This document shows, piece by piece, positions 1-64,000 of a stretch of 64,000 bases of DNA. How positions within the stretch are numbered: position 1 is the stretch's first letter; each line of letters opens with the position of its first letter. The DNA lies in assembly GCA_037893245.1 (NCBI GenBank), contig JBAIAA010000094.1, positions 310,001 to 374,000 on the forward strand, in the 5' to 3' direction. The stretch is from Crossaster papposus (taxonomy: Eukaryota; Echinodermata; Asteroidea; Velatida; Solasteridae). The notes beneath the pieces are model-generated. The model was not told the origin of the DNA and searched no databases. It worked only from the letters and a program-made list of their open reading frames with translations. The position numbers were made by a program, and so were the translations under genes.

Positions 1-57
1 ATATAAGTCGAGAAAATTATCCTCATTCGCAGCCATGTTTTCTTATGTGTATCTATG

Positions 58-67
58 TACACGTGTA
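58..67. other. 10-base palindrome with an E-box core (TACACGTGTA)
   Basis: A perfect palindrome with cacgtg at its centre, at monomer bases 58-67, present in most monomers. Class I has catgtg, Y has tacgtg and some C copies have aacgtg. Cacgtg is the core bound by many bHLH proteins. Binding here is not shown. Confidence 0.6.
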
Positions 68-74
68 TTGCCGC

Positions 75-84
75 ATAGGCCTAT
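75..84. other. 10-base palindrome (ATAGGCCTAT)
   Basis: A perfect palindrome at monomer bases 75-84, seven bases after the E-box palindrome and kept in most classes. K-type monomers carry cattggcctatt instead, which breaks the outer pairs. It contains aggcct, the StuI site. Confidence 0.6.
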
Positions 85-97
85 GTCGCCAGTGCCC

Positions 98-110
98 TGA
101 CGCATGAGTC
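98..110 (+). other. bZIP-like half sites tgacg and tgagtc
   Basis: Monomer bases 98-110 read tgacgcatgagtc, two half sites of the kind bound by AP-1 and CRE-type bZIP proteins. They are kept in nearly all monomers. This is a motif resemblance only. Confidence 0.25.
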
Positions 111-168
111 TCACAGTTTGGGTTCTTTCCATTGAGAAATTTGGCAATATTTTGGCTCAGATGTCGAG

Positions 169-177
169 CTGGTGAGT
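169..177 (+). other. Splice-donor-like motif ctg/gtgagt
   Basis: Monomer bases 169-177 fit the eukaryotic donor consensus closely. A pyrimidine-rich stretch ending in cgcag at bases 17-32 resembles an acceptor. A transcript of the + strand would meet both once per monomer. Class X and the P at 31048 read ggagag and lose the donor. Confidence 0.3.
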
Positions 178-190
178 GTCTCTTCATTCT

Positions 191-209
191 CGAACAACGT
201 TGAGGTTCG
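191..209. other. Nested dyad: cgaac / gttcg arms around caacgttg
   Basis: At monomer bases 191-209, five-base arms cgaac and gttcg face each other. An eight-base palindrome caacgttg at 195-202 overlaps the left arm. Class X (aacaagg), Y (aacgctg) and I-prime (gtggagg) lose parts of it. Confidence 0.5.
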
Positions 210-217
210 CAGCTCAA

Positions 218-434
218 ATTTCAGTCGAGAAAATTATCCTCATTCGCAGCCATGTTTTCTTATGTGTATCTATGTACACGTGTATTGCCGCATAGGCCTA
301 TGTCGCCAGTGCCCTGACGCATGAGTCTCACAGTTTGGGTTCTTTCCATTGAAAAATTTGGCAATATTTTGGCTCAGATGTCGACATGGTGAGTGTCTCT
401 TCATTATCGAACAACGTTGAGGTTCGCACCTAAG
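218..434 (+). repeat. Class A monomer
   Basis: This 217-bp copy is marked by ttgaaaaattt, gacatgg, attatcg and a cacctaag end. The ttgaaaaa form occurs only in monomers starting at 218, 1304, 1956, 3042, 4562, 5648, 27791 and 28877, that is in two blocks more than 20 kb apart. A close relative, A', has ttgagaaa and tgccgcc (8036, 18239, 22581, 24535, 30831, 31700). Confidence 0.9.
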
Positions 435-652
435 ATATAAGTCGAACAAATTATCCTCATTCGCAGCCACTTTTTCTTATGTGTATGTTTGTACACGTGT
501 ATTGCCGCATAGGCCTATGCCGCCAGTGGCCTGACGCATGAGTCTCACGGTTTGGGTTTTTTTCCAGTGAGAAGTTTGGCAATATTTTGGCTCAGATGTC
601 GAACTGGTGAGTGTCTCTTCATTCTCGAACAACGTTGAGGTTCGCAGCTCAA
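435..652 (+). repeat. Class P monomer, 218 bp
   Basis: This class carries one extra base in a seven-T run before ccagtgagaagttt, and is also marked by agtcgaac, ccactttt, a gtttgtac step, tgccgcc and gtggcctgac. It differs from class S at about 13 positions. All 29 monomers of 218 bp in the window are this class, for example at 435, 1521, 8253, 12160, 20410, 34956, 44941, 57960 and 62954. The extra base makes it a length marker for higher-order units. Confidence 0.93.
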
Positions 653-869
653 ATATAAGTCGAGAAAATTATCCTCATTCGCAGCCATGTTTTCTTATGT
701 GTATCTATGTACACGTGTATTGCCGCATAGGCCTATGTCGCCAGTGCCCTGACGCATGAGTCTCACAGTTTGGGTTTTTTCCATTAAGAAATTTGGCAAT
801 ATTTTGGCTCAGATGTCGAGATGGTGAGTGTCTCTTCATTCTTGAACAACGTTGAGGTTCGCAGCTAAG
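653..869 (+). repeat. Class F monomer
   Basis: This 217-bp copy has gagatgg and a cagctaag end, leading into a monomer that starts agtcgaaaaaatt. Two sub-forms exist: one with ttaagaaattt and attcttg (here), one with ttgagaaattt and attctcg (for example 3477 and 6083). It almost always precedes class I. Confidence 0.88.
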
Positions 870-1086
870 ATATAAGTCGAAAAAATTATCCTCATTCGCA
901 GCCACCTTTTCTTATGTGTATGTTTGTACATGTGTATTGCCGCATAGGCCTATGCCGCCAGTGCCCTGACGCATGAGTCTCACAGTTTGGGTTCTTTAAA
1001 TAGATACATTTGGCAATATTTTGGCTACGATGTCGAGCTGGTGAGTGTCTCTTCATTCTCGAACAACGTTGAGGTTCGCAGCTCAA
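870..1086 (+). repeat. Class I monomer
   Basis: This 217-bp copy is marked by agtcgaaaaa, ccacctttt, gtttgtac, catgtg in place of cacgtg, tgccgcc, aaatagatacattt and ggctacg. I count 14 differences from class S. The I_R form ends cacctaag (6300, 8688, 16720, 18891, 29529, 32352). A diverged I-prime form with gggcaat and gtggagg lies at 7602, 9773, 11292 and 12595. Confidence 0.9.
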
Positions 1087-1738
1087 ATATAAGTCGAGAA
1101 AATTATCCTCATTCGCAGCCATGTTTTCTTATGTGTATCTATGTACACGTGTATTGCCGCATAGGCCTATGTCGCCAGTGCCCTGACGCATGAGTCTCAC
1201 AGTTTGGGTTCTTTCCATTGAGAAATTTGGCAATATTTTGGCTCCGATGTCGAGCTGGTGAGTGTCTCTTCATTCTCGAACAACGTTGAGGTTCGCAGCT
1301 CAAATATCAGTCGAGAAAATTATCCTCATTCGCAGCCATGTTTTCTTATGTGTATCTATGTACACGTGTATTGCCGCATAGGCCTATGTCGCCAGTGCCC
1401 TGACGCATGAGTCTCACAGTTTGGGTTCTTTCCATTGAAAAATTTGGCAATATTTTGGCTCAGATGTCGACATGGTGAGTGTCTCTTCATTATCGAACAA
1501 CGTTGAGGTTCGCACCTAAGATATAAGTCGAACAAATTATCCTCATTCGCAGCCACTTTTTCTTATGTGTATGTTTGTACACGTGTATTGCCGCATAGGC
1601 CTATGCCGCCAGTGGCCTGACGCATGAGTCTCACGGTTTGGGTTTTTTTCCAGTGAGAAGTTTGGCAATATTTTGGCTCAGATGTCGAGCTGGTGAGTGT
1701 CTCTTCATTCTCGAACAACGTTGAGGTTCGCAGCTCAA

Positions 1739-3476
1739 ATATAAGTCGAGAAAATTATCCTCATTCGCAGCCATGTTTTCTTATGTGTATCTATGTACAC
1801 GTGTATTGCCGCATAGGCCTATGTCGCCAGTGCCCTGACGCATGAGTCTCACAGTTTGGGTTCTTTCCATTGAGAAATTTGGCAATATTTTGGCTCAGAT
1901 GTCGAGCTGGTGAGTGTCTCTTCATTCTCGAACAACGTTGAGGTTCGCAGCTCAAATTTCAGTCGAGAAAATTATCCTCATTCGCAGCCATGTTTTCTTA
2001 TGTGTATCTATGTACACGTGTATTGCCGCATAGGCCTATGTCGCCAGTGCCCTGACGCATGAGTCTCACAGTTTGGGTTCTTTCCATTGAAAAATTTGGC
2101 AATATTTTGGCTCAGATGTCGACATGGTGAGTGTCTCTTCATTATCGAACAACGTTGAGGTTCGCACCTAAGATATAAGTCGAACAAATTATCCTCATTC
2201 GCAGCCACTTTTTCTTATGTGTATGTTTGTACACGTGTATTGCCGCATAGGCCTATGCCGCCAGTGGCCTGACGCATGAGTCTCACGGTTTGGGTTTTTT
2301 TCCAGTGAGAAGTTTGGCAATATTTTGGCTCAGATGTCGAACTGGTGAGTGTCTCTTCATTCTCGAACAACGTTGAGGTTCGCAGCTCAAATATAAGTCG
2401 AGAAAATTATCCTCATTCGCAGCCATGTTTTCTTATGTGTATCTATGTACACGTGTATTGCCGCATAGGCCTATGTCGCCAGTGCCCTGACGCATGAGTC
2501 TCACAGTTTGGGTTTTTTCCATTAAGAAATTTGGCAATATTTTGGCTCAGATGTCGAGATGGTGAGTGTCTCTTCATTCTTGAACAACGTTGAGGTTCGC
2601 AGCTAAGATATAAGTCGAAAAAATTATCCTCATTCGCAGCCACCTTTTCTTATGTGTATGTTTGTACATGTGTATTGCCGCATAGGCCTATGCCGCCAGT
2701 GCCCTGACGCATGAGTCTCACAGTTTGGGTTCTTTAAATAGATACATTTGGCAATATTTTGGCTACGATGTCGAGCTGGTGAGTGTCTCTTCATTCTCGA
2801 ACAACGTTGAGGTTCGCAGCTCAAATATAAGTCGAGAAAATTATCCTCATTCGCAGCCATGTTTTCTTATGTGTATCTATGTACACGTGTATTGCCGCAT
2901 AGGCCTATGTCGCCAGTGCCCTGACGCATGAGTCTCACAGTTTGGGTTCTTTCCATTGAGAAATTTGGCAATATTTTGGCTCCGATGTCGAGCTGGTGAG
3001 TGTCTCTTCATTCTCGAACAACGTTGAGGTTCGCAGCTCAAATATCAGTCGAGAAAATTATCCTCATTCGCAGCCATGTTTTCTTATGTGTATCTATGTA
3101 CACGTGTATTGCCGCATAGGCCTATGTCGCCAGTGCCCTGACGCATGAGTCTCACAGTTTGGGTTCTTTCCATTGAAAAATTTGGCAATATTTTGGCTCA
3201 GATGTCGACATGGTGAGTGTCTCTTCATTATCGAACAACGTTGAGGTTCGCACCTAAGATATAAGTCGAACAAATTATCCTCATTCGCAGCCACTTTTTC
3301 TTATGTGTATGTTTGTACACGTGTATTGCCGCATAGGCCTATGCCGCCAGTGGCCTGACGCATGAGTCTCACGGTTTGGGTTTTTTTCCAGTGAGAAGTT
3401 TGGCAATATTTTGGCTCAGATGTCGAGCTGGTGAGTGTCTCTTCATTCTCGAACAACGTTGAGGTTCGCAGCTCAA
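1739..3476 (+). repeat. 8-monomer unit, copy 2 (1738 bp)
   Basis: This directly adjoins copy 1 and carries the same sub-class marks in the same order. It continues with an F-I pair (3477-3910) that copy 1 lacks, completing the 2172-bp decamer. Confidence 0.88.
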
Positions 3477-3910
3477 ATATAAGTCGAGAAAATTATCCTC
3501 ATTCGCAGCCATGTTTTCTTATGTGTATCTATGTACACGTGTATTGCCGCATAGGCCTATGTCGCCAGTGCCCTGACGCATGAGTCTCACAGTTTGGGTT
3601 CTTTCCATTGAGAAATTTGGCAATATTTTGGCTCAGATGTCGAGATGGTGAGTGTCTCTTCATTCTCGAACAACGTTGAGGTTCGCAGCTAAGATATAAG
3701 TCGAAAAAATTATCCTCATTCGCAGCCACCTTTTCTTATGTGTATGTTTGTACATGTGTATTGCCGCATAGGCCTATGCCGCCAGTGCCCTGACGCATGA
3801 GTCTCACAGTTTGGGTTCTTTAAATAGATACATTTGGCAATATTTTGGCTACGATGTCGAGCTGGTGAGTGTCTCTTCATTCTCGAACAACGTTGAGGTT
3901 CGCAGCTCAA

Positions 3911-4344
3911 ATATAAGTCGAGACAATTATCCTCATTCGCAGCCATGTTTTCTTATGTGTATCTATGTACACGTGTATTGCCGCATAGGCCTATGTCGCC
4001 AGTGCCCTGACGCATGAGTCTCACAGTTTGGGTTTTTTCCATTAAGAAATTTGGCAATATTTTGGCTCAGATGTCGAGATGGTGAGTGTCTCTTCATTCT
4101 TGAACAACGTTGAGGTTCGCAGCTAAGATATAAGTCGAAAAAATTATCCTCATTCGCAGCCACCTTTTCTTATGTGTATGTTTGTACATGTGTATTGCCG
4201 CATAGGCCTATGCCGCCAGTGCCCTGACGCATGAGTCTCACAGTTTGGGTTCTTTAAATAGATACATTTGGCAATATTTTGGCTACGATGTCGAGCTGGT
4301 GAGTGTCTCTTCATTCTCGAACAACGTTGAGGTTCGCAGCTCAA
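3911..4344 (+). repeat. Extra F-I dimer (434 bp)
   Basis: A second F-I pair directly follows the F-I pair at 3477-3910. The preceding I monomer leads into a junction with gagacaatt. The F here has ttaag and attcttg, whereas the F at 3477 has ttgag and attctcg, so the pair was copied from the other decamer phase rather than from its neighbour. Confidence 0.85.
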
Positions 4345-6733
4345 ATATAAGTCGAGAAAATTATCCTCATTCGCAGCCATGTTTTCTTATGTGTATCTAT
4401 GTACACGTGTATTGCCGCATAGGCCTATGTCGCCAGTGCCCTGACGCATGAGTCTCACAGTTTGGGTTCTTTCCATTGAGAAATTTGGCAATATTTTGGC
4501 TCAGATGTCGAGCTGGTGAGTGTCTCTTCATTCTCGAACAACGTTGAGGTTCGCAGCTCAAATTTCAGTCGAGAAAATTATCCTCATTCGCAGCCATGTT
4601 TTCTTATGTGTATCTATGTACACGTGTATTGCCGCATAGGCCTATGTCGCCAGTGCCCTGACGCATGAGTCTCACAGTTTGGGTTCTTTCCATTGAAAAA
4701 TTTGGCAATATTTTGGCTCAGATGTCGACATGGTGAGTGTCTCTTCATTATCGAACAACGTTGAGGTTCGCACCTAAGATATAAGTCGAACAAATTATCC
4801 TCATTCGCAGCCACTTTTTCTTATGTGTATGTTTGTACACGTGTATTGCCGCATAGGCCTATGCCGCCAGTGGCCTGACGCATGAGTCTCACGGTTTGGG
4901 TTTTTTTCCAGTGAGAAGTTTGGCAATATTTTGGCTCAGATGTCGAACTGGTGAGTGTCTCTTCATTCTCGAACAACGTTGAGGTTCGCAGCTCAAATAT
5001 AAGTCGAGAAAATTATCCTCATTCGCAGCCATGTTTTCTTATGTGTATCTATGTACACGTGTATTGCCGCATAGGCCTATGTCGCCAGTGCCCTGACGCA
5101 TGAGTCTCACAGTTTGGGTTTTTTCCATTAAGAAATTTGGCAATATTTTGGCTCAGATGTCGAGATGGTGAGTGTCTCTTCATTCTTGAACAACGTTGAG
5201 GTTCGCAGCTAAGATATAAGTCGAAAAAATTATCCTCATTCGCAGCCACCTTTTCTTATGTGTATGTTTGTACATGTGTATTGCCGCATAGGCCTATGCC
5301 GCCAGTGCCCTGACGCATGAGTCTCACAGTTTGGGTTCTTTAAATAGATACATTTGGCAATATTTTGGCTACGATGTCGAGCTGGTGAGTGTCTCTTCAT
5401 TCTCGAACAACGTTGAGGTTCGCAGCTCAAATATAAGTCGAGAAAATTATCCTCATTCGCAGCCATGTTTTCTTATGTGTATCTATGTACACGTGTATTG
5501 CCGCATAGGCCTATGTCGCCAGTGCCCTGACGCATGAGTCTCACAGTTTGGGTTCTTTCCATTGAGAAATTTGGCAATATTTTGGCTCCGATGTCGAGCT
5601 GGTGAGTGTCTCTTCATTCTCGAACAACGTTGAGGTTCGCAGCTCAAATATCAGTCGAGAAAATTATCCTCATTCGCAGCCATGTTTTCTTATGTGTATC
5701 TATGTACACGTGTATTGCCGCATAGGCCTATGTCGCCAGTGCCCTGACGCATGAGTCTCACAGTTTGGGTTCTTTCCATTGAAAAATTTGGCAATATTTT
5801 GGCTCAGATGTCGACATGGTGAGTGTCTCTTCATTATCGAACAACGTTGAGGTTCGCACCTAAGATATAAGTCGAACAAATTATCCTCATTCGCAGCCAC
5901 TTTTTCTTATGTGTATGTTTGTACACGTGTATTGCCGCATAGGCCTATGCCGCCAGTGGCCTGACGCATGAGTCTCACGGTTTGGGTTTTTTTCCAGTGA
6001 GAAGTTTGGCAATATTTTGGCTCAGATGTCGAGCTGGTGAGTGTCTCTTCATTCTCGAACAACGTTGAGGTTCGCAGCTCAAATATAAGTCGAGAAAATT
6101 ATCCTCATTCGCAGCCATGTTTTCTTATGTGTATCTATGTACACGTGTATTGCCGCATAGGCCTATGTCGCCAGTGCCCTGACGCATGAGTCTCACAGTT
6201 TGGGTTCTTTCCATTGAGAAATTTGGCAATATTTTGGCTCAGATGTCGAGATGGTGAGTGTCTCTTCATTCTCGAACAACGTTGAGGTTCGCAGCTAAGA
6301 TATAAGTCGAAAAAATTATCCTCATTCGCAGCCACCTTTTCTTATGTGTATGTTTGTACATGTGTATTGCCGCATAGGCCTATGCCGCCAGTGCCCTGAC
6401 GCATGAGTCTCACAGTTTGGGTTCTTTAAATAGATACATTTGGCAATATTTTGGCTACGATGTCGAGCTGGTGAGTGTCTCTTCATTCTCGAACAACGTT
6501 GAGGTTCGCACCTAAGATATAAGTCGAGAAAATTATCCTCATTCGCAGCCATGTTTTCTTATGTGTATCTATGTACACGTGTATTGCCGCATAGGCCTAT
6601 GTCGCCAGTGCCCTGACGCATGAGTCTCACAGTTTGGGTTCTTTCCATTGAGAAATTTGGCAATATTTTGGCTCAGATGTCGAGATGGTGAGTGTCTCTT
6701 CATTCTCGAACAACGTTGAGGTTCGCAGCTCAA

Positions 6734-15198: not shown

Positions 15199-15633
15199 AT
15201 ATCAGTCGAGAAAATTATCCTCATTCGCAGCCATGTTTTCTTATGTGTATCTATGTACACGTGTATTGCCGCATAGGCCTATGTCGCCAGTGCCCTGACG
15301 CATGAGTCTCACAGTTTGGGTTCTTTCCATTGAGAAATTTGGCAATATTTTGGCTCAGATGTCGAGATGGTGAGTGTCTCTTCATTATCGAACAACGTTG
15401 AGGTTCGCACCTAAGATATAAGTCGAACAAATTATCCTCATTCGCAGCCACCTTTTCTTATGTGTATGTTTGTACACGTGTATTGCCGCATAGGCCTATG
15501 CCGCCAGTGGCCTGACGCATGAGTCTCACGGTTTGGGTTTTTTTCCAGTGAGAAGTTTGGCAATATTTTGGCTCAGATGTCGAGCTGGTGAGTGTCTCTT
15601 CATTCTCGAACAACGTTGAGGTTCGCAGCTCAA
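15199..15633 (+). repeat. Two linking monomers (A-like and P)
   Basis: One monomer with attatcg, gagatgg and a cacctaag end (15199-15415) and one 218-bp P (15416-15633). They sit between the pentamer duplication and the 4342-bp duplication and are not part of either. Confidence 0.85.
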
Positions 15634-41034: not shown

Positions 41035-41251
41035 ATATAAGTCGAGAAAATTATCCTCATTCGCAGCCATGTTTTCTTATGTGTATCTATGTACACGTGT
41101 ATTGCCGCATAGGCCTATGTCGCCAGTGCCCTGACGCATGAGTCTCACAGTTTGGGTTCTTTCCATTGAGAAATTTGGCAATATTTTGGCTCAGATGTCG
41201 AGATGGTGAGTGTCTCTTCATTCTCGAACAACGTTGAGGTTCGCAGCTAAG

Positions 41252-46400: not shown

Positions 46401-46676
46401 AGATGTCGAGCTGGTGAGTGTCTCTTCATTCTCGAACAACGTTGAGGTTCGCACCTAAGATATAAGTCGAAAAAATTATCCTCATTCGCAGCCACCTTTT
46501 CTTCTGTGTATGTTTGTACACGTGTATTGCCGCATAGGCCTATGCCGCCAGTGCCCTGACGCATGAGTCTCACAGTTTGGGTTCTTTCAATAGAGAAATT
46601 TGGCAATATTTTGGCTCCGATGTCGAGCTGGTGAGTGTCTCTTCATTCTCGAACAACGTTGAGGTTCGCAGCTCAA
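43422..46676 (+). repeat. 15-monomer HOR, copy 1 (3255 bp)
   Basis: Matches 46677-49931 at a constant offset of 3255. Shared rare marks are ctcactgttcgg, ccatagag, gacacatgag, tcgaccaac, atatatgtcg, cagtaagaag with gagccgg, gtaaacg, ttttgtctcc and the one-base-short atgttttttatg. Differences I noticed are ccacctttt for ccatgtttt near 43891, ctatgacgcc for ctatgtcgcc near 45460, and gcatgagtc here for gcaagagtc near 48083. Confidence 0.92.
46027..46242 (+). repeat. 216-bp monomer (one-base deletion)
   Basis: This monomer has atgttttttatg, one base shorter than the usual form. The same short monomer sits at 49282-49497, 52102-52317 and 54272-54487, each after a K copy with ttttgtctcc, so all four descend from one event. 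The related monomer at 59046 has the c-to-t change without the deletion, and the one at 40167 likewise, suggesting the order of change. Confidence 0.88.
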
Positions 46677-49600
46677 ATATAAGTCGAGAAAATTATCCTC
46701 ATTCGCAGCCATGTTTTCTTATGTGTATCTATGTACACGTGTATTGCCGCATAGGCCTATGTCGCCAGTGCCCTGACGCATGAGTCTCACAGTTTGGGTT
46801 CTTTCCATTGAGAAATTTGGCAATATTTCGGCTCAGATGTCGAGATGGTGAGTGTCTCTTCATTCTCGAACAACGTTGAGGTTCGCACCTAAGATATAAG
46901 TCGAGAAAATTATCCTCATTCGCAGCCATGTTTTCTTATGTGTATCTATGTACACGTGTATTGCCGCATAGGCCTATGTCGCCAGTGCCCTGACGCATGA
47001 GTCTCACAGTTTGGGTTCTTTCCATTGAGAAATTTGGCAATATTTTGGCTCAGATGTCGAGATGGTGAGTGTCTCTTCATTCTCGAACAACGTTGAGGTT
47101 CGCAGCTCAAATATAAGTCTAGAAAATTATCCTCATTCGCAGCCATGTTTTCTTATGTGTATCTATGTACACGTGTATTGCCGCATAGGCCTATGTCGCC
47201 AGTGCCCTGACGCATGAGTCTCACTGTTCGGGTTCTTTCCATTGAGAAATTTGGCAATATTTTGGCTCAGATGTCGAGATGGTGAGTGTCTCTTCATTAT
47301 CGAACAACGTTGAGGTTCGCAGCTCAAATATAAGTCGAGACAATTATCCTCATTCGCAGCCATGTTTTCTTATGTGTATCTATGTACACGTGTATTGCCG
47401 CATAGGCCTATGTCGCCAGTGCCCTGACGCATGAGTCTCACAGTTTGGGTTTTTTCCATAGAGAAATTTGGCAATATTTTGGCTCCGATGTCGAGCTGGT
47501 GAGTGTCTCTTCATTCTCGAACAACGTTGAGGTTCGCAGCTCAAATATAAGTCGAGAAAATTATCCTCATTCGCAGCCACCTTTTCTTATGTGTATGTTT
47601 GTACACGTGTATTGCCGCATTGGCCTATTCCGCCAGTGCCCCGACGCATGAGTCTCACAGTTTGGGTTCTTTCCATTGAGAAATTTGGCAATATTTTGGC
47701 TCAGATGTCGAGATGGTGAGTGTCTCTTCATTCTCGAACAACGTTGAGGTTCGCACCTAAGATATAAGTCGAGAAAATTATCCTCATTCGCAGCCATGTT
47801 TTCTTATGTGTATCTATGTACACGTGTATTGCCGCATAGGCCTATGTCGCCAGTGCCCTGACACATGAGTCTCACAGTTTGGGTTCTTTCCATTGAGAAA
47901 TTTGGCAATATTTTGGCTCAGATGTCGAGATGGTGAGTGTCTCTTCATTATCGACCAACGTTGAGGTTCGCACCTAAGATATATGTCGAACAAATTATCC
48001 TCATTCGCAGCCACCTTTTCTTATGTGTATGTTTGTACACGTGTATTGCCGCATAGGCCTATGTCGCCAGTGCCCTGACGCAAGAGTCTCACAGTTTGGG
48101 TTCTTTCCATTGATAAATTTGGCAATATTTTGGCTCAGATGTCGAGATGGTGAGTGTCTCTTCATTATCGAACAACGTTGAGGTTCGCACCTAAGATATA
48201 AGTCGAACAAATTATCCTCATTCGCAGCCACCTTTTCTTATGTGTATGTTTGTACACGTGTATTGCCGCATAGGCCTATGCCGCCAGTGGCCTGACGCAT
48301 GAGTCTCACGGTTTGGGTTTTTTTCCAGTAAGAAGTTTGGCAATATTTTGGCTCAGATGTCGAGCCGGTGAGTGTCTCTTCATTCTCGAACAACGTTGAG
48401 GTTCGCAGCTCAAATATAAGTCTAGAAAATTATCCTCATTCGCAGCCATGTTTTCTTATGTGTATCTATGTAAACGTGTATTGCCGCATAGGCCTATGTC
48501 GCCAGTGCCCTGACGCATGAGTCTCACAGTTTGGGTTCTTTCCATTGAGAAATTTGGCAATATTTTGGCTCAGATGTCGAGATGGTGAGTGTCTCTTCAT
48601 TATCGAACAACGTTGAGGTTCGCAGCTCAAATATAAGTCGAGACAATTATCCTCATTCGCAGCCATGTTTTCTTATGTGTATCTATGTACACGTGTATTG
48701 CCGCATAGGCCTATGTCGCCAGTGCCCTGACGCATGAGTCTCACAGTTTGGGTTTTTTCCAGTGAGAAATTTGGCAATATTTTGGCTCAGATGTCGAGCT
48801 GGAGAGTGTCTCTTCATTCTCGAACAAGGTTGAGGTTCGCAGCTCAGATACAAGTCGAGAAAATTATCCTCATTCGCAGCCATGTTTTCTTATGTGTATC
48901 TATGTACACGTGTATTGCCGCATAGGCCTATGTCGCCAGTGCCCTGACGCATGAGTCTTACAGTTTGTGTTCTTCAAATAGAGAAATTTGGCAATATTTT
49001 GGCTCAGATGTCGAGCTGGTGAGTGTCTCTTCATTCTCGAACAACGTTGAGGTTCGCAGCTAAGATATAAGTCGAGAAAATTATCCTCATTCGCAGCCAC
49101 CTTTTCTTCTGTGTATGTTTGTACACGTGTATTGCCGCATTGGCCTATTCCGCCAGTGCCCCGACGCATGAGTCTCACAGTTTGGGTTCTTTGTATTGGG
49201 ACATTTGGCAATATTTTGTCTCCGATGTCGAGCTGGTGAGTGTCTCTTCATTCTCGAACAACGTTGAGGTTCGCAGCTCAAATATAAGTCGAGAAAATTA
49301 TCCTCATTCGCAGCCATGTTTTTTATGTGTATCTATGTACACGTGTATTGCCGCATAGGCCTATGTCGCCAGTGCCCTGACGCATGAGTCTCACAGTTTG
49401 GGTTCTTTCCATTGAGAAATTTGGCAATATTTTGGCTCAGATGTCGAGATGGTGAGTGTCTCTTCATTCTCGAACAAAGTTGAGGTTCGCAGCTAAGATA
49501 TAAGTCGAACAAATTATCCTCATTCGCAGCCACCTTTTCTTATGTGTATGTTTGTACATGTGTATTGCCGCATAGGCCTATGCCGCCAGTGCCCTGACGC

Positions 49601-49931
49601 ATGAGTCTCACAGTTTGGGTTCTTTCCATTGAGAAATTTGGCAATATTTTGGCTCAGATGTCGAGCTGGTGAGTGTCTCTTCATTCTCGAACAACGTTGA
49701 GGTTCGCACCTAAGATATAAGTCGAAAAAATTATCCTCATTCGCAGCCACCTTTTCTTCTGTGTATGTTTGTACACGTGTATTGCCGCATAGGCCTATGC
49801 CGCCAGTGCCCTGACGCATGAGTCTCACAGTTTGGGTTCTTTCAATAGAGAAATTTGGCAATATTTTGGCTCCGATGTCGAGCTGGTGAGTGTCTCTTCA
49901 TTCTCGAACAACGTTGAGGTTCGCAGCTCAA
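46677..49931 (+). repeat. 15-monomer HOR, copy 2 (3255 bp)
   Basis: Tandem partner of 43422-46676, with the same order of 15 classes ending in M. It is followed by a partial third copy that keeps the first two monomers and a C, then switches to X-N-K at 50583. Confidence 0.92.
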
Positions 49932-52597
49932 ATATAAGTCGAGAAAATTATCCTCATTCGCAGCCATGTTTTCTTATGTGTATCTATGTACACGTGTATT
50001 GCCGCATAGGCCTATGTCGCCAGTGCCCTGACGCATGAGTCTCACAGTTTGGGTTCTTTCCATTGAGAAATTTGGCAATATTTCGGCTCAGATGTCGAGA
50101 TGGTGAGTGTCTCTTCATTCTCGAACAACGTTGAGGTTCGCACCTAAGATATAAGTCGAGAAAATTATCCTCATTCGCAGCCATGTTTTCTTATGTGTAT
50201 CTATGTACACGTGTATTGCCGCATAGGCCTATGTCGCCAGTGCCCTGACGCATGAGTCTCACAGTTTGGGTTCTTTCCATTGAGAAATTTGGCAATATTT
50301 TGGCTCAGATGTCGAGATGGTGAGTGTCTCTTCATTCTCGAACAACGTTGAGGTTCGCAGCTCAAATATAAGTCTAGAAAATTATCCTCATTCGCAGCCA
50401 TGTTTTCTTATGTGTATCTATGTACACGTGTATTGCCGCATAGGCCTATGTCGCCAGTGCCCTGACGCATGAGTCTCACTGTTTGGGTTCTTTCCATTGA
50501 GAAATTTGGCAATATTTTGGCTCAGATGTCGAGATGGTGAGTGTCTCTTCATTATCGAACAACGTTGAGGTTCGCAGCTCAAATATAAGTCGAGACAATT
50601 ATCCTCATTCGCAGCCATGTTTTCTTATGTGTATCTATGTACACGTGTATTGCCGCATAGGCCTATGTCGCCAGTGCCCTGACGCATGAGTCTCACAGTT
50701 TGGGTTTTTTCCAGTGAGAAATTTGGCAATATTTTGGCTCAGATGTCGAGCTGGAGAGTGTCTCTTCATTCTCGAACAAGGTTGAGGTTCGCAGCTCAGA
50801 TACAAGTCGAGAAAATTATCCTCATTCGCAGCCATGTTTTCTTATGTGTATCTATGTACACGTGTATTGCCGCATAGGCCTATGTCGCCAGTGCCCTGAC
50901 GCATGAGTCTTACAGTTTGTGTTCTTCAAATGGAGAAATTTGGCAATATTTTGGCTCAGATGTCGAGCTGGTGAGTGTCTCTTCATTCTCGAACAACGTT
51001 GAGGTTCGCAGCTAAGATATAAGTCGAGAAAATTATCCTCATTCGCAGCCACCTTTTCTTATGTGTATGTTTGTACACGTGTATTGCCGCATTGGCCTAT
51101 TCCGCCAGTGCCCCGACGCATGAGTCTCACAGTTTGGGTTCTTTGTATTGGGACATTTGGCAATATTTTGGCTCCGATGTCGAGCTGGTGAGTGTCTCTT
51201 CATTCTCGAACAACGTTGAGGTTCGCAGCTCAAATATAAGTCGAGAAAATTATCCTCATTCGCAGCCATGTTTTCTTATGTGTATCTATGTACACGTGTA
51301 TTGCCGCATAGGCCTATGTCGCCAGTGCCCTGACGCATGAGTCTCACAGTTTGGGTTCTTTCCATTGAGAAATTTGGCAATATTTCGGCTCAGATGTCGA
51401 GATGGTGAGTGTCTCTTCATTCTCGAACAACGTTGAGGTTCGCACCTAAGATATAAGTCGAGAAAATTATCCTCATTCGCAGCCATGTTTTCTTATGTGT
51501 ATCTATGTACACGTGTATTGCCGCATAGGCCTATGTCGCCAGTGCCCTGACGCATGAGTCTCACAGTTTGGGTTTTTTCCAGTGAGAAATTTGGCAATAT
51601 TTTGGCTCAGATGTCGAGCTGGAGAGTGTCTCTTCATTCTCGAACAAGGTTGAGGTTCGCAGCTCAGATACAAGTCGAGAAAATTATCCTCATTCGCAGC
51701 CATGTTTTCTTATGTGTATCTATGTACACGTGTATTGCCGCATAGGCCTATGTCGCCAGTGCCCTGACGCATGAGTCTTACAGTTTGTGTTCTTCAAATA
51801 GAGAAATTTGGCAATATTTTGGCTCAGATGTCGAGCTGGTGAGTGTCTCTTCATTCTCGAACAACGTTGAGGTTCGCAGCTAAGATATAAGTCGAGAAAA
51901 TTATCCTCATTCGCAGCCACCTTTTCTTCTGTGTATGTTTGTACACGTGTATTGCCGCATTAGCCTATTCCGCCAGTGCCCCGACGCATGAGTCTCACAG
52001 TTTGGGTTCTTTGTATTGGGACATTTGGCAATATTTTGTCTCCGATGTCGAGCTGGTGAGTGTCTCTTCATTCTCGAACAACGTTGAGGTTCGCAGCTCA
52101 AATATAAGTCGAGAAAATTATCCTCATTCGCAGCCATGTTTTTTATGTGTATCTATGTACACGTGTATTGCCGCATAGGCCTATGTCGCCAGTGCCCTGA
52201 CGCATGAGTCTCACAGTTTGGGTTCTTTCCATTGAGAAATTTGGCAATATTTTGGCTCAGATGTCGAGATGGTGAGTGTCTCTTCATTCTCGAACAAAGT
52301 TGAGGTTCGCAGCTAAGATATAAGTCGAACAAATTATCCTCATTCGCAGCCACCTTTTCTTATGTGTATGTTTGTACATGTGTATTGCCGCATAGGCCTA
52401 TGCCGCCAGTGCCCTGACGCATGAGTCTCACAGTTTGGGTTCTTTCCATTGAGAAATTTGGCAATATTTTGGCTCAGATGTCGAGCTGGTGAGTGTCTCT
52501 TCATTCTCGAACAACGTTGAGGTTCGCACCTAAGATATAAGTCGAAAAAATTATCCTCATTCGCAGCCACCTTTTCTTCTGTGTATGTTTGTACACG
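47608..52597 (+). repeat. 23-monomer tandem duplication, left unit (4990 bp)
   Basis: Monomers from 47.6 to 51.45 kb recur at an offset of 4990 bases. The right end of the unit is the chimeric monomer at 52535-52751. The unit overlaps the second 3255-bp copy, so it was duplicated after the 15-mer pair formed. Confidence 0.85.
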
Positions 52598-52751
52598 TGT
52601 ATTGCCGCATTGGCCTATTCCGCCAGTGCCCCGACGCATGAGTCTCACAGTTTGGGTTCTTTCCATTGAGAAATTTGGCAATATTTTGGCTCAGATGTCG
52701 AGATGGTGAGTGTCTCTTCATTCTCGAACAACGTTGAGGTTCGCACCTAAG
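52535..52751 (+). repeat. Chimeric junction monomer
   Basis: The left part (agtcgaaaaa, ccacc, cttctgtg) matches the M copy at 49715. The right part (cattggcc, ttccgcc, gccccgac, ttccattgag, gagatgg, cacctaag) matches the monomer at 47545. The switch lies between about 52,579 and 52,610. This is what an unequal exchange between two monomers in register would leave. Confidence 0.83.
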
Positions 52752-55700
52752 ATATAAGTCGAGAAAATTATCCTCATTCGCAGCCATGTTTTCTTATGTG
52801 TATCTATGTACACGTGTATTGCCGCATAGGCCTATGTCGCCAGTGCCCTGACACATGAGTCTCACAGTTTGGGTTCTTTCCATTGAGAAATTTGGCAATA
52901 TTTTGGCTCAGATGTCGAGATGGTGAGTGTCTCTTCATTATCGACCAACGTTGAGGTTCGCACCTAAGATATATGTCGAACAAATTATCCTCATTCGCAG
53001 CCACCTTTTCTTATGTGTATGTTTGTACACGTGTATTGCCGCATAGGCCTATGTCGCCAGTGCCCTGACGCATGAGTCTCACAGTTTGGGTTCTTTCCAT
53101 TGATAAATTTGGCAATATTTTGGCTCAGATGTCGAGATGGTGAGTGTCTCTTCATTATCGAACAACGTTGAGGTTCGCACCTAAGATATAAGTCGAACAA
53201 ATTATCCTCATTCGCAGCCACCTTTTCTTATGTGTATGTTTGTACACGTGTATTGCCGCATAGGCCTATGCCGCCAGTGGCCTGACGCATGAGTCTCACG
53301 GTTTGGGTTTTTTTCCAGTAAGAAGTTTGGCAATATTTTGGCTCAGATGTCGAGCCGGTGAGTGTCTCTTCATTCTCGAACAACGTTGAGGTTCGCAGCT
53401 CAAATATAAGTCTAGAAAATTATCCTCATTCGCAGCCATGTTTTCTTATGTGTATCTATGTAAACGTGTATTGCCGCATAGGCCTATGTCGCCAGTGCCC
53501 TGACGCATGAGTCTCACAGTTTGGGTTCTTTCCATTGAGAAATTTGGCAATATTTTGGCTCAGATGTCGAGATGGTGAGTGTCTCTTCATTATCGAACAA
53601 CGTTGAGGTTCGCAGCTCAAATATAAGTCGAGACAATTATCCTCATTCGCAGCCATGTTTTCTTATGTGTATCTATGTACACGTGTATTGCCGCATAGGC
53701 CTATGTCGCCAGTGCCCTGACGCATGAGTCTCACAGTTTGGGTTTTTTCCAGTGAGAAATTTGGCAATATTTTGGCTCAGATGTCGAGCTGGAGAGTGTC
53801 TCTTCATTCTCGAACAAGGTTGAGGTTCGCAGCTCAGATACAAGTCGAGAAAATTATCCTCATTCGCAGCCATGTTTTCTTATGTGTATCTATGTACACG
53901 TGTATTGCCGCATAGGCCTATGTCGCCAGTGCCCTGACGCATGAGTCTTACAGTTTGTGTTCTTCAAATAGAGAAATTTGGCAATATTTTGGCTCAGATG
54001 TCGAGCTGGTGAGTGTCTCTTCATTCTCGAACAACGTTGAGGTTCGCAGCTAAGATATAAGTCGAGAAAATTATCCTCATTCGCAGCCACCTTTTCTTCT
54101 GTGTATGTTTGTACACGTGTATTGCCGCATTGGCCTATTCCGCCAGTGCCCCGACGCATGAGTCTCACAGTTTGGGTTCTTTGTATTGGGACATTTGGCA
54201 ATATTTTGTCTCCGATGTCGAGCTGGTGAGTGTCTCTTCATTCTCGAACAACGTTGAGGTTCGCAGCTCAAATATAAGTCGAGAAAATTATCCTCATTCG
54301 CAGCCATGTTTTTTATGTGTATCTATGTACACGTGTATTGCCGCATAGGCCTATGTCGCCAGTGCCCTGACGCATGAGTCTCACAGTTTGGGTTCTTTCC
54401 ATTGAGAAATTTGGCAATATTTTGGCTCAGATGTCGAGATGGTGAGTGTCTCTTCATTCTCGAACAAAGTTGAGGTTCGCAGCTAAGATATAAGTCGAAC
54501 AAATTATCCTCATTCGCAGCCACCTTTTCTTATGTGTATGTCTGTACATGTGTATTGCCGCATAGGCCTATGCCGCCAGTGCCCTGACGCATGAGTCTCA
54601 CAGTTTGGGTTCTTTCCATTGAGAAATTTGGCAATATTTTGGCTCAGATGTCGAGCTGGTGAGTGTCTCTTCATTCTCGAACAACGTTGAGGTTCGCACC
54701 TAAGATATAAGTCGAAAAAATTATCCTCATTCGCAGCCACCTTTTCTTCTGTGTATGTTTGTACACGTGTATTGCCGCATAGGCCTATGCCGCCAGTGCC
54801 CTGACGCATGAGTCTCACAGTTTGGGTTCTTTCAATAGAGAAATTTGGCAATATTTTGGCTCCGATGTCGAGCTGGTGAGTGTCTCTTCATTCTCGAACA
54901 ACGTTGAGGTTCGCAGCTCAAATATAAGTCGAGAAAATTATCCTCATTCGCAGCCATGTTTTCTTATGTGTATCTATGTACACGTGTATTGCCGCATAGG
55001 CCTATGTCGCCAGTGCCCTGACGCATGAGTCTCACAGTTTGGGTTCTTTCCATTGAGACATTTGGCAATATTTCGGCTCAGATGTCGAGATGGTGAGTGT
55101 CTCTTCATTCTCGAACAACGTTGAGGTTCGCACCTAAGATATAAGTCGAGAAAATTATCCTCATTCGCAGCCATGTTTTCTTATGTGTATCTATGTACAC
55201 GTGTATTGCCGCATAGGCCTATGTCGCCAGTGCCCTGACGCATGAGTCTCACAGTTTGGGTTCTTTCCATTGAGAAATTTGGCAATATTTTGGCTCAGAT
55301 GTCGAGATGGTGAGTGTCTCTTCATTCTCGAACAACGTTGAGGTTCGCAGCTCAAATATAAGTCTAGAAAATTATCCTCATTCGCAGCCATGTTTTCTTA
55401 TGTGTATCTATGTACACGTGTATTGCCGCATAGGCCTATGTCGCCAGTGCCCTGACGCATGAGTCTCACTGTTTGGGTTCTTTCCATTGAGAAATTTGGC
55501 AATATTTTGGCTCAGATGTCGAGATGGTGAGTGTCTCTTCATTATCGAACAACGTTGAGGTTCGCAGCTCAAATATAAGTCGAGACAATTATCCTCATTC
55601 GCAGCCATGTTTTCTTATGTGTATCTATGTACACGTGTATTGCCGCATAGGCCTATGTCGCCAGTGCCCTGACGCATGAGTCTCACAGTTTGGGTTTTTT

Positions 55701-56440
55701 CCAGTGAGAAATTTGGCAATATTTTGGCTCAGATGTCGAGCTGGAGAGTGTCTCTTCATTCTCGAACAAGGTTGAGGTTCGCAGCTCAGATACAAGTCGA
55801 GAAAATTATCCTCATTCGCAGCCATGTTTTCTTATGTGTATCTATGTACACGTGTATTGCCGCATAGGCCTATGTCGCCAGTGCCCTGACGCATGAGTCT
55901 TACAGTTTGTGTTCTTCAAATGGAAAAATTTGGCAATATTTTGGCTCAGATGTCGAGCTGGTGAGTGTCTCTTCATTCTCGAACAACGTTGAGGTTCGCA
56001 GCTAAGATATAAGTCGAGAAAATTATCCTCATTCGCAGCCACCTTTTCTTATGTGTATGTTTGTACACGTGTATTGCCGCATTGGCCTATTCCGCCAGTG
56101 CCCCGACGCATGAGTCTCACAGTTTGGGTTCTTTGTATTGGGACATTTGGCAATATTTTGGCTCCGATGTCGAGCTGGTGAGTGTCTCTTCATTCTCGAA
56201 CAACGTTGAGGTTCGCAGCTCAAATATAAGTCGAGAAAATTATCCTCATTCGCAGCCATGTTTTCTTATGTGTATCTATGTACACGTGTATTGCCGCATA
56301 GGCCTATGTCGCCAGTGCCCTGACGCATGAGTCTCACAGTTTGGGTTCTTTCCATTGAGAAATTTGGCAATATTTCGGCTCAGATGTCGAGATGGTGAGT
56401 GTCTCTTCATTCTCGAACAACGTTGAGGTTCGCACCTAAG
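52598..56440 (+). repeat. 23-monomer duplication, right unit (3.84 kb retained)
   Basis: Same class order as 47608-51450. Differences I noticed are gtctgtac near 54541 against gtttgtac, gagacattt near 55057 against gagaaattt, atggaaaa near 55921 against atggagaa, and gcatgag near 53072 against gcaagag. Correspondence stops at 56441, where this copy has T and the other has X. Confidence 0.85.
54922..56223 (+). repeat. 6-monomer unit Q-T-C-X-N-K, copy 1 (1302 bp)
   Basis: Repeated at 56224-57525. Shared marks are ctcactgtttgg in C and atgga in N (this copy has atggaaaa, the next atggagaa). This copy alone has gagacattt in Q. Confidence 0.9.
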
Positions 56441-59696: not shown

Positions 59697-60348
59697 ATAT
59701 AAGTCGAGAAAATTATCCTCATTCGCAGCCATGTTTTCTTATGTGTATCTATGTACACGTGTATTGCCGCATAGGCCTATGTCGCAAGTGCCCTGACGCA
59801 TGAGTCTCACAGTTTGGGTTCTTTCCATTGAGAAATTTGGCAATATTTTGGCTCAGATGTCGAGATGGTGAGTGTCTCTTCATTCTCGAACAACGTTGAG
59901 GTTCGCAGCTAAAATATAAGTCGAAAAAATTATCCTCATGCGCAGCCACCTTTTCTTATGTGTATGTTTGTACATGTGTATTGCCGCATAGGCCTATGCC
60001 GCCAGTGGCCTGACGCATGAGTCTCACGGTTTGGGTTTTTTTCCAGTGAGAAGTTTGGCAATATTTTGGCTCAGATGTCGAGCTGGTGAGTGTCTCTTCA
60101 TTCTCGAACAACGTTGAGGTTCGCAGCTCAAATATAAGTCGAGAAAATTATCCTCATTCGCAGCCATGTTTTCTTATGTGTATCTATGTACACGTGTATT
60201 GCCGCATAGGCCTATGTCGCCAGTGCCCTGACGCATGAGTCTCACAGTTTGGGTTCTTTAAATAGAGAAATTTGGCAATATTTTGGCTCCGATGTCGAGC
60301 TGGTGAGTGTCTCTTCATTCTCGAACAACGTTGAGGTTCGCAGCTCAA
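59697..60348 (+). repeat. Three linking monomers (F-like, P, I/S mosaic)
   Basis: An F-like copy with cgcaagtg and ctcatgcgc marks, a P copy that carries catgtg like class I (59914-60131), and a copy with aaatagagaaattt and ggctccg (60132-60348). Confidence 0.83.
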
Positions 60349-61434
60349 ATATAAGTCGAGAAAATTATCCTCATTCGCAGCCATGTTTTCTTATGTGTAT
60401 CTATGTACACGTGTATTGCCGCATAGGCCTATGTCGCCAGTGCCCTGACGCATGAGTCTCACAGTTTGGGTTCTTTCCATTGAGAAATTTGGCAATATTT
60501 TGGCTCAGATGTCGAGATGGTGAGTGTCTCTTCATTATCGAACAACGTTGAGGTTCGCAGCTCAAATATAAGTCGAGAAAATTATCCTCATTCGCAGCCA
60601 TGTTTTCTTATGTGTATCTATGTACACGTGTATTGCCGCATAGGCCTATGTCGCCAGTGCCCTGACGCATGAGTCTCACAGTTTGGTTTTTTTCCAGTGA
60701 AAAATTTGGCAATATTTTGGCTTAGATGTCGAGCTAGTGAGTGTCTCTTTATTCTCGAACAACGTTGAGGTTCGCAGCTCAGATATAAGTCGACAAAATT
60801 ATCCTCATTCGCAGCCATGTTTTCTTATGTGTATCTATGTACACGTGTATTGCCGCATAGGCCTATGTCGCCAGTGCCCTGACGCATGAGTCTCACAATT
60901 TGGGTTCTTTCCATTGAGAAATTTGGCAATATTTTGGCTCAGATGTCGAGCTGGTGAGTGTCTCTTCTTTCTCGAACAACGTTGAGGTTCGCAGCTCAAA
61001 TATAAGTTGAGAAAATTATCCTCATTCGCAGCCATGTTTTCTTATGTGTATCTATGTACACGTGTATTGCCGCATAGGCCTATGTCGCCAGTGCCCTGAC
61101 GCATGAGTCTCACAGTTTGGGTTCTTTCCATTGAGAAATTTGGCAATATTTTGGCTCAGATGTCGAGATGGTGAGTGTCTCTTCATTCTCGAACAACGTT
61201 GAGGTTCGCACCTATGATATAAGTCGAACAAATTATCCTCATTCGCAGCCACCTTTTCTTATGTGTATGTTTGTACACGTGTATTGCCGCATAGGCCTAT
61301 GCCGCCAGTGGCCTGACGCATGAGTCTCACGGTTTGGGTTTTTTTCCAGTGAGAAGTTTGGCAATATTTTGGCTCAGATGTCGAGCTGGTGAGTGTCTCT
61401 TCATTCTCCAACAACGTTGAGGTTCGCAGCTCAA
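60349..61434 (+). repeat. 1086-bp pentamer, copy 1 (diverged type)
   Basis: Five monomers including a P at 61217. Marks shared with 61435-62520 are ccagtgaaaaattt with ggcttag and ctagtgag, agtcgacaaaatt, acaatttggg, and agttgagaaaatt. Private changes are tcttctttctc near 60967 and cctatgata near 61212. Confidence 0.88.
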
Positions 61435-62520
61435 ATATAAGTCGAGAAAATTATCCTCATTCGCATCCATGTTTTCTTATGTGTATCTATGTACACGTGT
61501 ATTGCCGCATATGCCTATGTCGCCAGTGCCCTGACGCATGAGTCTCACAGTTTGGGTTCTTTCCATTGAGAAATTTGGCAATATTTTGGCTCAGATGTCG
61601 AGATGGTGAGTGTCTCTTCATTATCGAACAACGTTGAGGTTCGCAGCTCAAATATAAGTCGAGAAAATTATCCTCATTCGCAGCCATGTTTTCTTATGTG
61701 TATCTATGTACACGTGTATTGCCGCATAGGCCTATGTCGCCAGTGCCCTGACGCATGAGTCTCACAGTTTGGGTTTTTTCCAGTGAAAAATTTGGCAATA
61801 TTTTGGCTTAGATGTCGAGCTAGTGAGTGTCTCTTTATTTTCGAACAACGTTGAGGTTCGCAGCTCAGATATAAGTCGACAAAATTATCCTCATTCGCAG
61901 CCATGTTTCCTTATGTGTATCTATGTACACGTGTATTGCCGCATAGGCCTATGTCGCCAGTGCCCTGACGCATGAGTCTCACAATTTGGGTTCTTTCCAT
62001 TGAGAAATTTGGCAATATTTTGGCTCAGATGTCGAGCTGGTGAGTGTCTCTTCATTCTCGAACAACGTTGAGGTTCGCAGCTCAAATATAAGTTGAGAAA
62101 ATTATCCTCATTCGCAGCCATGTTTTCTTATGTGTATCTATGTACACGTGTATTGCCGCATAGGCCTATGTCGCCAGTGCCCTGACGCATGAGTCTCACA
62201 GTTTGGGTTTTTTCCAGTGAGGAATTTGGCAATATTTTGGCTCAGATGTCGAGCTAGTGAGTGTCTCTTTATTCTCGAACAACGTTGAGGTTCGCACCTA
62301 AGATATAAGTCGAACAAATTATCCTCATTCGCAGCCACCTTTTCTTATGTGTATGTTTGTACACGTGTATTGCCGCATAGGCCTATGCCGCCAGTGGCCT
62401 GACGCATGAGTCTCACGGTTTGGGTTTTTTTCCAGTGAGAAGTTTGGCAATATTTTTGCTCAGATGTCGAGCTGGTGAGTGTCTCTTCATTCTCGAACAA
62501 CGTTGAGGTTCGCAGCTCAA
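61435..62520 (+). repeat. 1086-bp pentamer, copy 2 (diverged type)
   Basis: Partner of 60349-61434. The fourth monomer (62086) differs from its counterpart (61000): it has ttttttccagtgagg and ctagtgag, so it was converted from another class. Private changes are cattcgcatcc, gcatatgcc and atatttttgct. Confidence 0.86.
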
Positions 62521-63821
62521 ATATAAGTCGAGAAAATTATCCTCATTCGCAGCCATGTTTTCTTTGTGTATCTATGTACACGTGTATTGCCGCATAGGCC
62601 TATGTCGCCAGTGCCCTGACGCACGAGTCTCACAGTTTGGGTTTTTTCCAGTGAGAAATTTGGCAATATTTTGGTTCAGATGTCGAGCTAGTGAGTGTCT
62701 CTTTATTCTCGAACAACGTTGAGGTTCGCAGCTAAGATATAAGTCGAAAAAATTATCCTCATTCGCAGCCACCTTTTCTTATGTGTATGTTTGTACACGT
62801 GTATTGCCGCATAGGCCTATGTCGCCAGTGCCCTGACGCATGAGTCTCACAGTTTGGGTTCTTTCCATTGAGAAATTTGGCAATATTTTGGCTCAGATGT
62901 CGAGATGGTGAGTGTCTCTTCATTCTCGAACAACGTTGAGGTTCGCACCTAAGATATAAGTCGAACAAATTATCCTCATTCGCAGCCACCTTTTCTTATG
63001 TGTATGTTTGTACACGTGTATTGCCGCATAGGCCTATGCCGCCAGTGGCCTGACGCATGAGTCTCACGGTTTGGGTTTTTTTCCAGTGAGAAGTTTGGCA
63101 ATATTTTGGCTCCGATGTCGAGCTGGTGAGTGTCTCTTCATTCTCGAACAACGTTGAGGTTCGCAGCTCAAATATAAGTCGAGAAAATTATCCTCATTCG
63201 CAGTCATGTTTTCTTATGTGTATCTATGTACACGTGTATTGCCGCATAGGCCTATGTCGCCAGTGCCCTGACGCATGAGTCTCACAGTTTGGTTTTTTCC
63301 AGTGAGAAATTTGGCAATATTTTGGCTTAGATGTCGAGCTAGTGAGTGTCTCTTTATTCTCGAACAACGTTGAGGTTCGCAGCTCAGATATAAGTCGAGA
63401 AAATTAACCTCATTCGCAGCCATGTTTTCTTGTGTGTATCTATGTACACGTGTATTGCCGCACTGGCCTATGTCGCCAGTGCCCTGACTCATGAGTCTCA
63501 CAGTTTGGGTTCTTTCCATTGAGAAATTTGGCAATATTTTTGCTCAGATGTTGAGCTGGAGAGTGTCTCTTCATTCTCGAACAACGTTGAGGTTCGCAGC
63601 TAAGATATAAGTCGAGAAAATTATCCTCATTCGCAGCCACCTTTTCTTATGTGTATGTTTGTACACGTGTATTGCCGCATTGGCCTATTCCGCCAGTGCC
63701 CCGACGCATGAGTCTCACAGTTTGGGTTCTTTCTATTGGGAAATTTGGCAATATTTTGGCTCCGATGTCGAGCTGGTGAGTGTCTCTTCATTCTCGAACA
63801 ACGTTGAGGTTCGCAGCTCAA
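62521..63821 (+). repeat. Diverged right-hand monomers
   Basis: Six monomers, two of them 216 bp (62521-62736, a base lost in ttctttgtg; 63172-63387, agtttggttttttcc). The P at 62954 has ggctccg. The density of private changes (for example gcacgag, ttggttcag, attaacctc, cttgtgtg, cactggcc, gactcatg, atgttgag) is higher than in the middle of the window. Confidence 0.85.
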
Positions 63822-64000
63822 ATATAAGTCGAGAAAATTATACTCATTCGCAGCCATGTTTTCTTATGTGTATCTATGTACACGTGTATTGCCGCATAGG
63901 CCTATGTCGCCAGTGCCCTGACGCATGAGTCTCACAGTTTGGGTTCTTTCCATTGAGAAATTTGGCAATATTTTGGCTCAGATGTCGAGATGGTCAGTGT
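63822..64000 (+). repeat. Partial monomer at the window edge (179 bp)
   Basis: The first 179 bases of a monomer, cut by the window edge after gagatggtcagtgt. The array clearly continues to the right. The ggtcagtg form is private (ggtgagtg elsewhere). Confidence 0.9.

What the first reader, a model, noticed from the sequence alone, without database searches (positions are those of the whole stretch)
1..64000. Undisturbed 64 kb satellite with nested higher-order repeats
Seen: 294 monomers with no transposon, no inversion and no unique sequence; classes about 6% apart but units nearly identical. Established: this two-level pattern is the mark of homogenised satellites such as alphoid DNA. Inference: an active, young core of a centromeric or pericentromeric array. 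I do not recognise the family.
Basis: partly seen in the sequence, partly recalled or inferred. Interest (0 to 1): 0.75.

Follow-up and report, generated by a model that had tools for sequence, protein, structure and literature searches.

The report
Ordinary 217-bp satellite DNA array
The whole 64 kb stretch is one head-to-tail satellite repeat whose recent history of local block duplications can be read from it, which is ordinary for such DNA; whether it lies at a centromere cannot be told from the sequence.

Summary
The array is real. The window is one uninterrupted, single-orientation array of a 217-bp monomer: 294 whole monomers of 216-218 bp, no inverted copy of four conserved words. Monomers differ by 5.6% on average, while blocks recur at offsets of 4-23 monomers with 99-100% identity. 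Monomer order is far from random: the longest near-identical run is 20 monomers, against at most 5 in 50 permuted orders. 'Nested higher-order repeats' is only partly right: no unit runs through the array. There are overlapping local block duplications, each tandem run about two copies deep. LD between variable sites decays over about 200 bp, across monomer borders, so finer exchange is inferred too. The centromere reading is untested: no host genome is held, and no CENP-B-like box was found. No convincing relative was found in the viral, plasmid, phage or prokaryote collections. Eight paper searches gave no confirmed match; two of four 217-bp nuclear repeats found were excluded, two could not be compared. 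Most likely a non-coding eukaryotic satellite shaped by unequal exchange: a new member of a known kind, of low interest.

The parts
1..64000 (+). Continuous head-to-tail array of a 217-bp satellite monomer; it reaches both ends of the window
22..238 (+). First whole monomer in the register used here (cut at the conserved anchor)
125..139 (+). Most variable stretch of the monomer (alignment columns 105-119), shown in the first monomer; multi-base variants
   Evidence: 9 of 15 columns vary by more than 5%; p = 0.008 by permutation of columns; haplotypes
74..85 (.). 12-bp perfect palindrome of the consensus (monomer positions 53-64), shown in the first monomer; a 10-bp palindrome ends six bases before it
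   Evidence: longest palindrome p = 0.055, summed palindromes p = 0.017 against mononucleotide shuffles
1..3644 (+). Block duplication at offset 8 monomers: 1-1906 identical to 1739-3644
1681..6510 (+). Block duplication at offset 12 monomers: 1681-3904 identical to 4287-6510
15576..24469 (+). Block duplication at offset 20 monomers (4,342 bp): 15576-20127 against 19918-24469, in two exact pieces that meet at a one-base break
24912..27741 (+). Block duplication at offset 6 monomers: 24912-26439 identical to 26214-27741
42907..50483 (+). Block duplication at offset 15 monomers (3,255 bp), a run of 20 monomers with 5 differences in 4,340 bp
48084..55924 (+). Block duplication at offset 23 monomers (about 4,990 bp), a run of 18 monomers with 5 differences in 3,906 bp; the span given is that of its two longest exact pieces
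28819..30142 (+). 1,324 bp identical to 5590-6913, 23.2 kb away: an exact repeat whose two copies are not neighbours

Best explanation
This is a non-coding eukaryotic satellite DNA array. New sequence is added by duplication of multi-monomer blocks (about 4-23 monomers, 0.9-5 kb), by unequal crossing-over or break-induced copying between misaligned sister or homologous arrays. Exchange over shorter stretches shuffles variants inside and across monomers. Shown: the array, the blocks, their identity and the LD decay. Inferred: the recombination mechanism, the eukaryotic origin, and any role in chromosome structure such as heterochromatin or a centromere.
For: Single 217-bp array over all 64 kb; no inserts and one orientation. 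Block copies at 99-100% against 5.6% difference between monomers in general. The nearest place at which a monomer finds its best match is a median of 12 monomers away, commonest 5 (43 of 294), 6 (30) and 15 (29). Run length far above permuted order. LD (r2) falls from 0.256 at 0-19 bp to 0.033 at 200-219 bp and 0.024 from 400 bp on, measured across monomer borders. No RNA family on the whole window, no tRNA, no Pfam match in 4 ORFs tested of 295 listed. No match in plasmids or phages (first 3,000 bases only) or in viral contigs (two exact words). Of two exact words scanned in prokaryote genomes, one gave 0; the other gave 63 stretches with at most 20 exact bases, or 23 bases at 96%, in the 30 best blastn rows shown, which cover 15 of the 63.
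Against: No source genome could be searched, so abundance, location and even the host kingdom are not shown. The 63 prokaryote hits of the 18-base word are more than the 7-8 that a uniform-base estimate gives (2 x 257 Gb / 4^18, my arithmetic); I put the excess down to the composition of the word, which was not tested. A mis-assembly that duplicated or collapsed blocks cannot be excluded without reads. The LD decay could in part reflect convergent mutation rather than exchange, and copied blocks make its cells non-independent.
Confidence: 0.9

Rival explanations
1. It is the active centromere core: the 217-bp monomer carries CENP-A/CENH3 nucleosomes and the array is homogenised because the kinetochore sits there.
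For: Homogeneous array with recent block duplications; monomer not far above nucleosome length (recalled); several short palindromes, summed p = 0.017 against mononucleotide shuffles. A 217-bp repeat was used to place centromeres in rice bean (one passage), but its sequence was not seen.
Against: No CENP-B-like box: at most 6 of 9 core bases in the consensus and 7 of 9 once in the window. Single-strand folding of one monomer is ordinary, z = -0.52. Conserved runs in the monomer are no longer than in permuted columns. Nothing in the sequence separates a centromere from other heterochromatin.
Confidence: 0.35
2. The array lies in heterochromatin outside the kinetochore core (pericentromeric, subtelomeric, sex- or B-chromosome block, or a single knob) and is a passive product of unequal exchange.
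For: The same anatomy is expected there (inference); for example HvarSat03-217 of a ladybird gives FISH signal on one bivalent only (PMC7397073, passages).
Against: No positional evidence either way.
Confidence: 0.5
3. Part of the block structure is an assembly artefact (duplicated or collapsed long-read contigs).
For: Some blocks are exactly identical over 1.9-3.3 kb, which is where assemblers may err (recalled).
Against: Blocks of ten different unit sizes, with 0-9 differences per run, overlap in a graded way, which a single assembly error would not give (inference).
Confidence: 0.1

Closest known systems
Alpha satellite cascading higher-order repeats (human chromosome 15; PMC11050224, abstract and section list seen)
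   Same: Monomer types recur inside a block, blocks contain sub-blocks, and unit sizes (15 and 20 monomers, with a 5-monomer subfragment) are alike.
   Different: There, hundreds of copies of one unit (429 copies of a 15mer); here each tandem run is about two copies deep. Monomer 217 bp against about 171 bp; no sequence relation was tested.
HvarSat03-217, ladybird Hippodamia variegata (PMC7397073, passages seen)
   Same: Monomer length 217 bp; Kimura divergence 6.67% there, mean pairwise difference 5.6% here (different measures).
   Different: Its two PCR primers fit the window no better than random 19-mers (7-8 mismatches at best; 40 random 19-mers gave 5-9). A+T 59.9% against about 56%.
Pp08_217, moss Physcomitrella patens (PMC6302065, section 11 read)
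   Same: Tandem repeat of 217 bp.
   Different: blastn of the two units, words of 7, E up to 10: no hit.
217-bp centromere-specific repeat of rice bean Vigna umbellata, rnd-6_family-604 (PMC9523027, one passage seen)
   Same: Repeat length 217 bp, used by its authors to place centromeres.
   Different: The sequence is not in the passage seen, so identity could not be tested.
HF 252, Hedysarum flavescens (PMC11595117, passages seen)
   Same: Repeat length 217 bp; weak FISH signals in pericentromeric regions.
   Different: Only 0.014% of that genome; sequence not in the passages seen, so identity could not be tested.
Tribolium madens major and minor satellites (PMC13081366, abstract and section list seen)
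   Same: Long satellite arrays; there in putative (peri)centromeres.
   Different: Hallmark there is macro-dyad symmetry (inverted arrays); here four words occur 0 times on the minus strand. Both satellites there derive from an element of about 110 bp.

Membership tests
Satellite DNA (tandem, head-to-tail, non-coding) | Long uninterrupted tandem array of a monomer of 100-1000 bp | tested here: met
Satellite DNA (tandem, head-to-tail, non-coding) | No conserved coding frame or RNA gene | tested here: met
   217 is not a multiple of 3; listed ORFs stay at 113 aa or less; no Pfam match in 4 of 295 ORFs tested; no Rfam match; no tRNA
Satellite DNA (tandem, head-to-tail, non-coding) | High copy number in the genome, heterochromatic location | not testable with these tools
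   no host genome held
Regular (Willard-type) higher-order repeat array | One multi-monomer unit repeated in register through the array | tested here: not met
   best offset of 1-273, 23 monomers, pairs 17.7% of monomers at 3 or fewer differences
Locally duplicated or cascading HOR organisation | Multi-monomer blocks nearly identical while monomers within differ | tested here: met
Alpha satellite or CENP-B-box satellite | CENP-B box, 9 core bases | tested here: not met
   6 of 9 at best in the consensus, one site with 7 of 9 in the window; the motif used is recalled
Centromeric satellite | CENP-A/CENH3 enrichment, position at the primary constriction | not testable with these tools
   no chromatin or positional data
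HvarSat03-217 | Carries the published primer sites | tested here: not met
   7-8 mismatches at best, as for random words
Physcomitrella Pp08_217 | Sequence similarity to the published unit | tested here: not met
   no blastn hit at E up to 10

The most novel reading that the evidence does not exclude
An undescribed satellite family with an unusual growth rule: multi-monomer blocks are copied and single monomers almost never are. Only 1 of 293 neighbouring pairs has 3 or fewer differences, against 18.5 expected in permuted order, and monomers of one type (P) tend not to lie side by side. If this avoidance is a constraint and not only inherited through block copies, it would resemble the alternating box-carrying monomers of alphoid DNA (recalled) and point to a spaced protein-binding site in a centromere.
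Probability: 0.07. Interest if true: 0.5.

Novelty: new member of a known kind. Interest (0 to 1): 0.17.

Why it matters
It is a clean example of satellite growth by local block duplication that can be read at base level. If the host is known and the family proves centromeric, the P/Q monomer classes and block borders would be useful markers. By itself it changes no general picture.

Tried and rejected
Centromere by CENP-B box: no support. Unusual DNA folding: the fold of one monomer is ordinary; palindromes are only mildly enriched, and were tested against mononucleotide shuffles only. Conserved binding blocks: the longest conserved runs are no longer than in permuted columns (p = 0.49, 0.42 and 0.68 at three thresholds). 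Bacterial promoter or terminator patterns in the first 2,200 bases: none found. Sub-repeats inside one monomer: only short two-copy matches of 8-17 bases, taken as chance; no shuffle was run. Avoidance of like neighbours: strong when every pair is counted (1 of 293 against 18.5, minimum 4 of 5,000 permutations; PP pairs 14 against 31.1, minimum 16 of 5,000). Once each distinct neighbour pair is counted once it shrinks to p = 0.037, 0.077 and 0.32 at three cluster cut-offs, so it is mostly inherited through block copies; this correction was not run for the P type itself.

Relation to published 217-bp repeats: Hippodamia excluded by its primers and Physcomitrella Pp08_217 by blastn; Vigna and Hedysarum HF 252 not comparable, no sequence in the passages seen. 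A 217-bp repeat in an aphid mitochondrial genome (PMC7872531, listing only) was not followed. The 40 papers (10 listed) were not opened. Searching the literature for six 13-15-base words of the monomer gave 3 papers, judged unrelated from the listing alone. Prokaryote 18-mer hits (63 loci): judged chance matches to an A+T-rich word, as no more than 23 bases aligned in the 30 rows shown, covering 15 of 63 loci.

Full report
Observation. Tandem Repeats Finder reports a single array over 1-64000, period 217, 294.8 copies, 93% matches and 0% indels. Cutting at a conserved 14-base anchor gives 295 sites and 294 whole monomers: 259 of 217 bp, 29 of 218 and 6 of 216; 136 are distinct and the mean pairwise difference is 5.63%. 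Four conserved words are found 294-295 times on the + strand and never on the - strand with up to 2 mismatches, so there is no sign of inversion. With no monomer outside 216-218 bp there is no insert either. G+C is even, 0.434-0.445 in 4-kb steps.

Higher-order structure. Clustering the 294 monomers at 5 differences gives 31 classes. Their order shows recurring words: D-C-A-E-B 10 times, all starting by monomer 146; F-H-I-G 10 times and J-K-L 6 times, all from monomer 173 on (monomers numbered from 0). Near-identical runs (3 or fewer differences per monomer) reach 20 monomers at offset 20 (1 difference in 4,340 bp), 20 at offset 15 (5 in 4,340) and 18 at offset 23 (5 in 3,906). A run of 8 at offset 8 and one of 9 at offset 12 show no difference. 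In 50 permuted orders the longest run was 5. The inventory of tandem runs (offsets 1-30, run at least 4 monomers and at least 0.75 of the unit) holds 16 runs with unit sizes 4, 5, 6, 7, 8, 9, 12, 15, 20 and 23 monomers; 5 of the 16 have unit 5. Each is 1.75-2.6 copies deep. No unit holds over the array: the best offset (23) pairs 17.7% of monomers. Exact repeats also join distant places, for example 1,324 bp at 5590-6913 and 28819-30142. The thirds of the window are no more alike within than between (11.97-12.46 differences), although classes H, I, J, K and L occur only from monomer 169 on. So 'nested HORs' is better put as overlapping local block duplications of several sizes.

Finer exchange. 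Linkage between variable sites, measured along the DNA and across monomer borders, falls from r2 0.256 (0-19 bp) to 0.033 (200-219 bp) and 0.024 (from 400 bp on); in the 136 distinct monomers it falls from 0.259 to 0.064 with circular distance. The monomer border as cut here is therefore no boundary for exchange. I infer short-tract conversion or crossing-over at arbitrary points on top of block duplication; convergent mutation may add to it.

Neighbour avoidance. Neighbouring monomers are less alike than random pairs: 1 of 293 has 3 or fewer differences, against 18.5 in permuted order with a minimum of 4 in 5,000; the mean is 13.87 differences against 12.22. A type P (96 of 294 monomers, five linked sites) lies beside another P 14 times, against 31.1 expected and a minimum of 16 in 5,000 shuffles. 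But blocks are copied, so pairs are not independent. Counting each distinct neighbour pair once, self-pairs are 0 of 97 (3.2 expected, p 0.037), 1 of 72 (4.1, p 0.077) and 3 of 40 (4.5, p 0.32) at three cut-offs. The plain reading is that duplications have rarely been of a single monomer.

Function. No Rfam match in the first 6,000 bases at E up to 1 or in the window at gathering score; no tRNA; ORFs of 113 aa or less, and no Pfam match at E up to 1 in the 4 tested of 295. The CENP-B box (recalled motif) is not present: at most 6 of 9 core bases in the consensus and 7 of 9 at one site. CpG observed/expected is 0.95, so there is no sign of long CpG decay. The consensus has palindromes of 12, 10 and 8 bp, mildly more than mononucleotide shuffles, and one monomer folds no better than shuffles as a single strand (z -0.52). 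Variable columns cluster at 105-119 of the alignment (p 0.008), while conserved runs are not longer than expected.

Relatives. No whole genome is held for the window. The first 3,000 bases match nothing in plasmids or phages. One word of 25 and one of 19 bases match no viral contig. A 24-base word matches no prokaryote genome contig. An 18-base word matches 63 stretches; all were given to blastn, and the 30 best rows shown (15 loci) are limited to 19-23 bases. I take them as chance, although 63 exceeds a uniform-base estimate of 7-8. In the literature library eight of ten searches sought this repeat. Four nuclear repeats of 217 bp were met: the ladybird family is excluded by its primers, the moss repeat by blastn; the rice bean centromere repeat and Hedysarum HF 252 could not be compared. 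Absence of a published match is limited to these searches; supplementary files were not open to me.

Verdict. A eukaryotic (inferred) satellite array, a new member of a known kind, with readable block-duplication history. The centromere claim stays open.

Noticed in passing
monomer alignment columns 105-119 (window 125-139 in the first monomer): Hypervariable stretch with multi-base haplotypes, some shared by both P and Q types; could come from short-tract exchange with a diverged variant.
   Followed up: partly
1-64000, rare variants: Alleles seen once in 294 monomers are 31 transversions to 15 transitions, a lack of transition bias; 7 of these 46 are at CpG bases, which are 9.2% of the monomer. 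Small numbers.
   Followed up: no
5590-6913 and 28819-30142: Exact 1,324-bp repeat 23 kb apart, which duplication of neighbouring blocks does not explain by itself.
   Followed up: no
1-64000: CpG observed/expected 0.95 and a steady AT skew of about -0.18 to -0.20 over the whole array.
   Followed up: no
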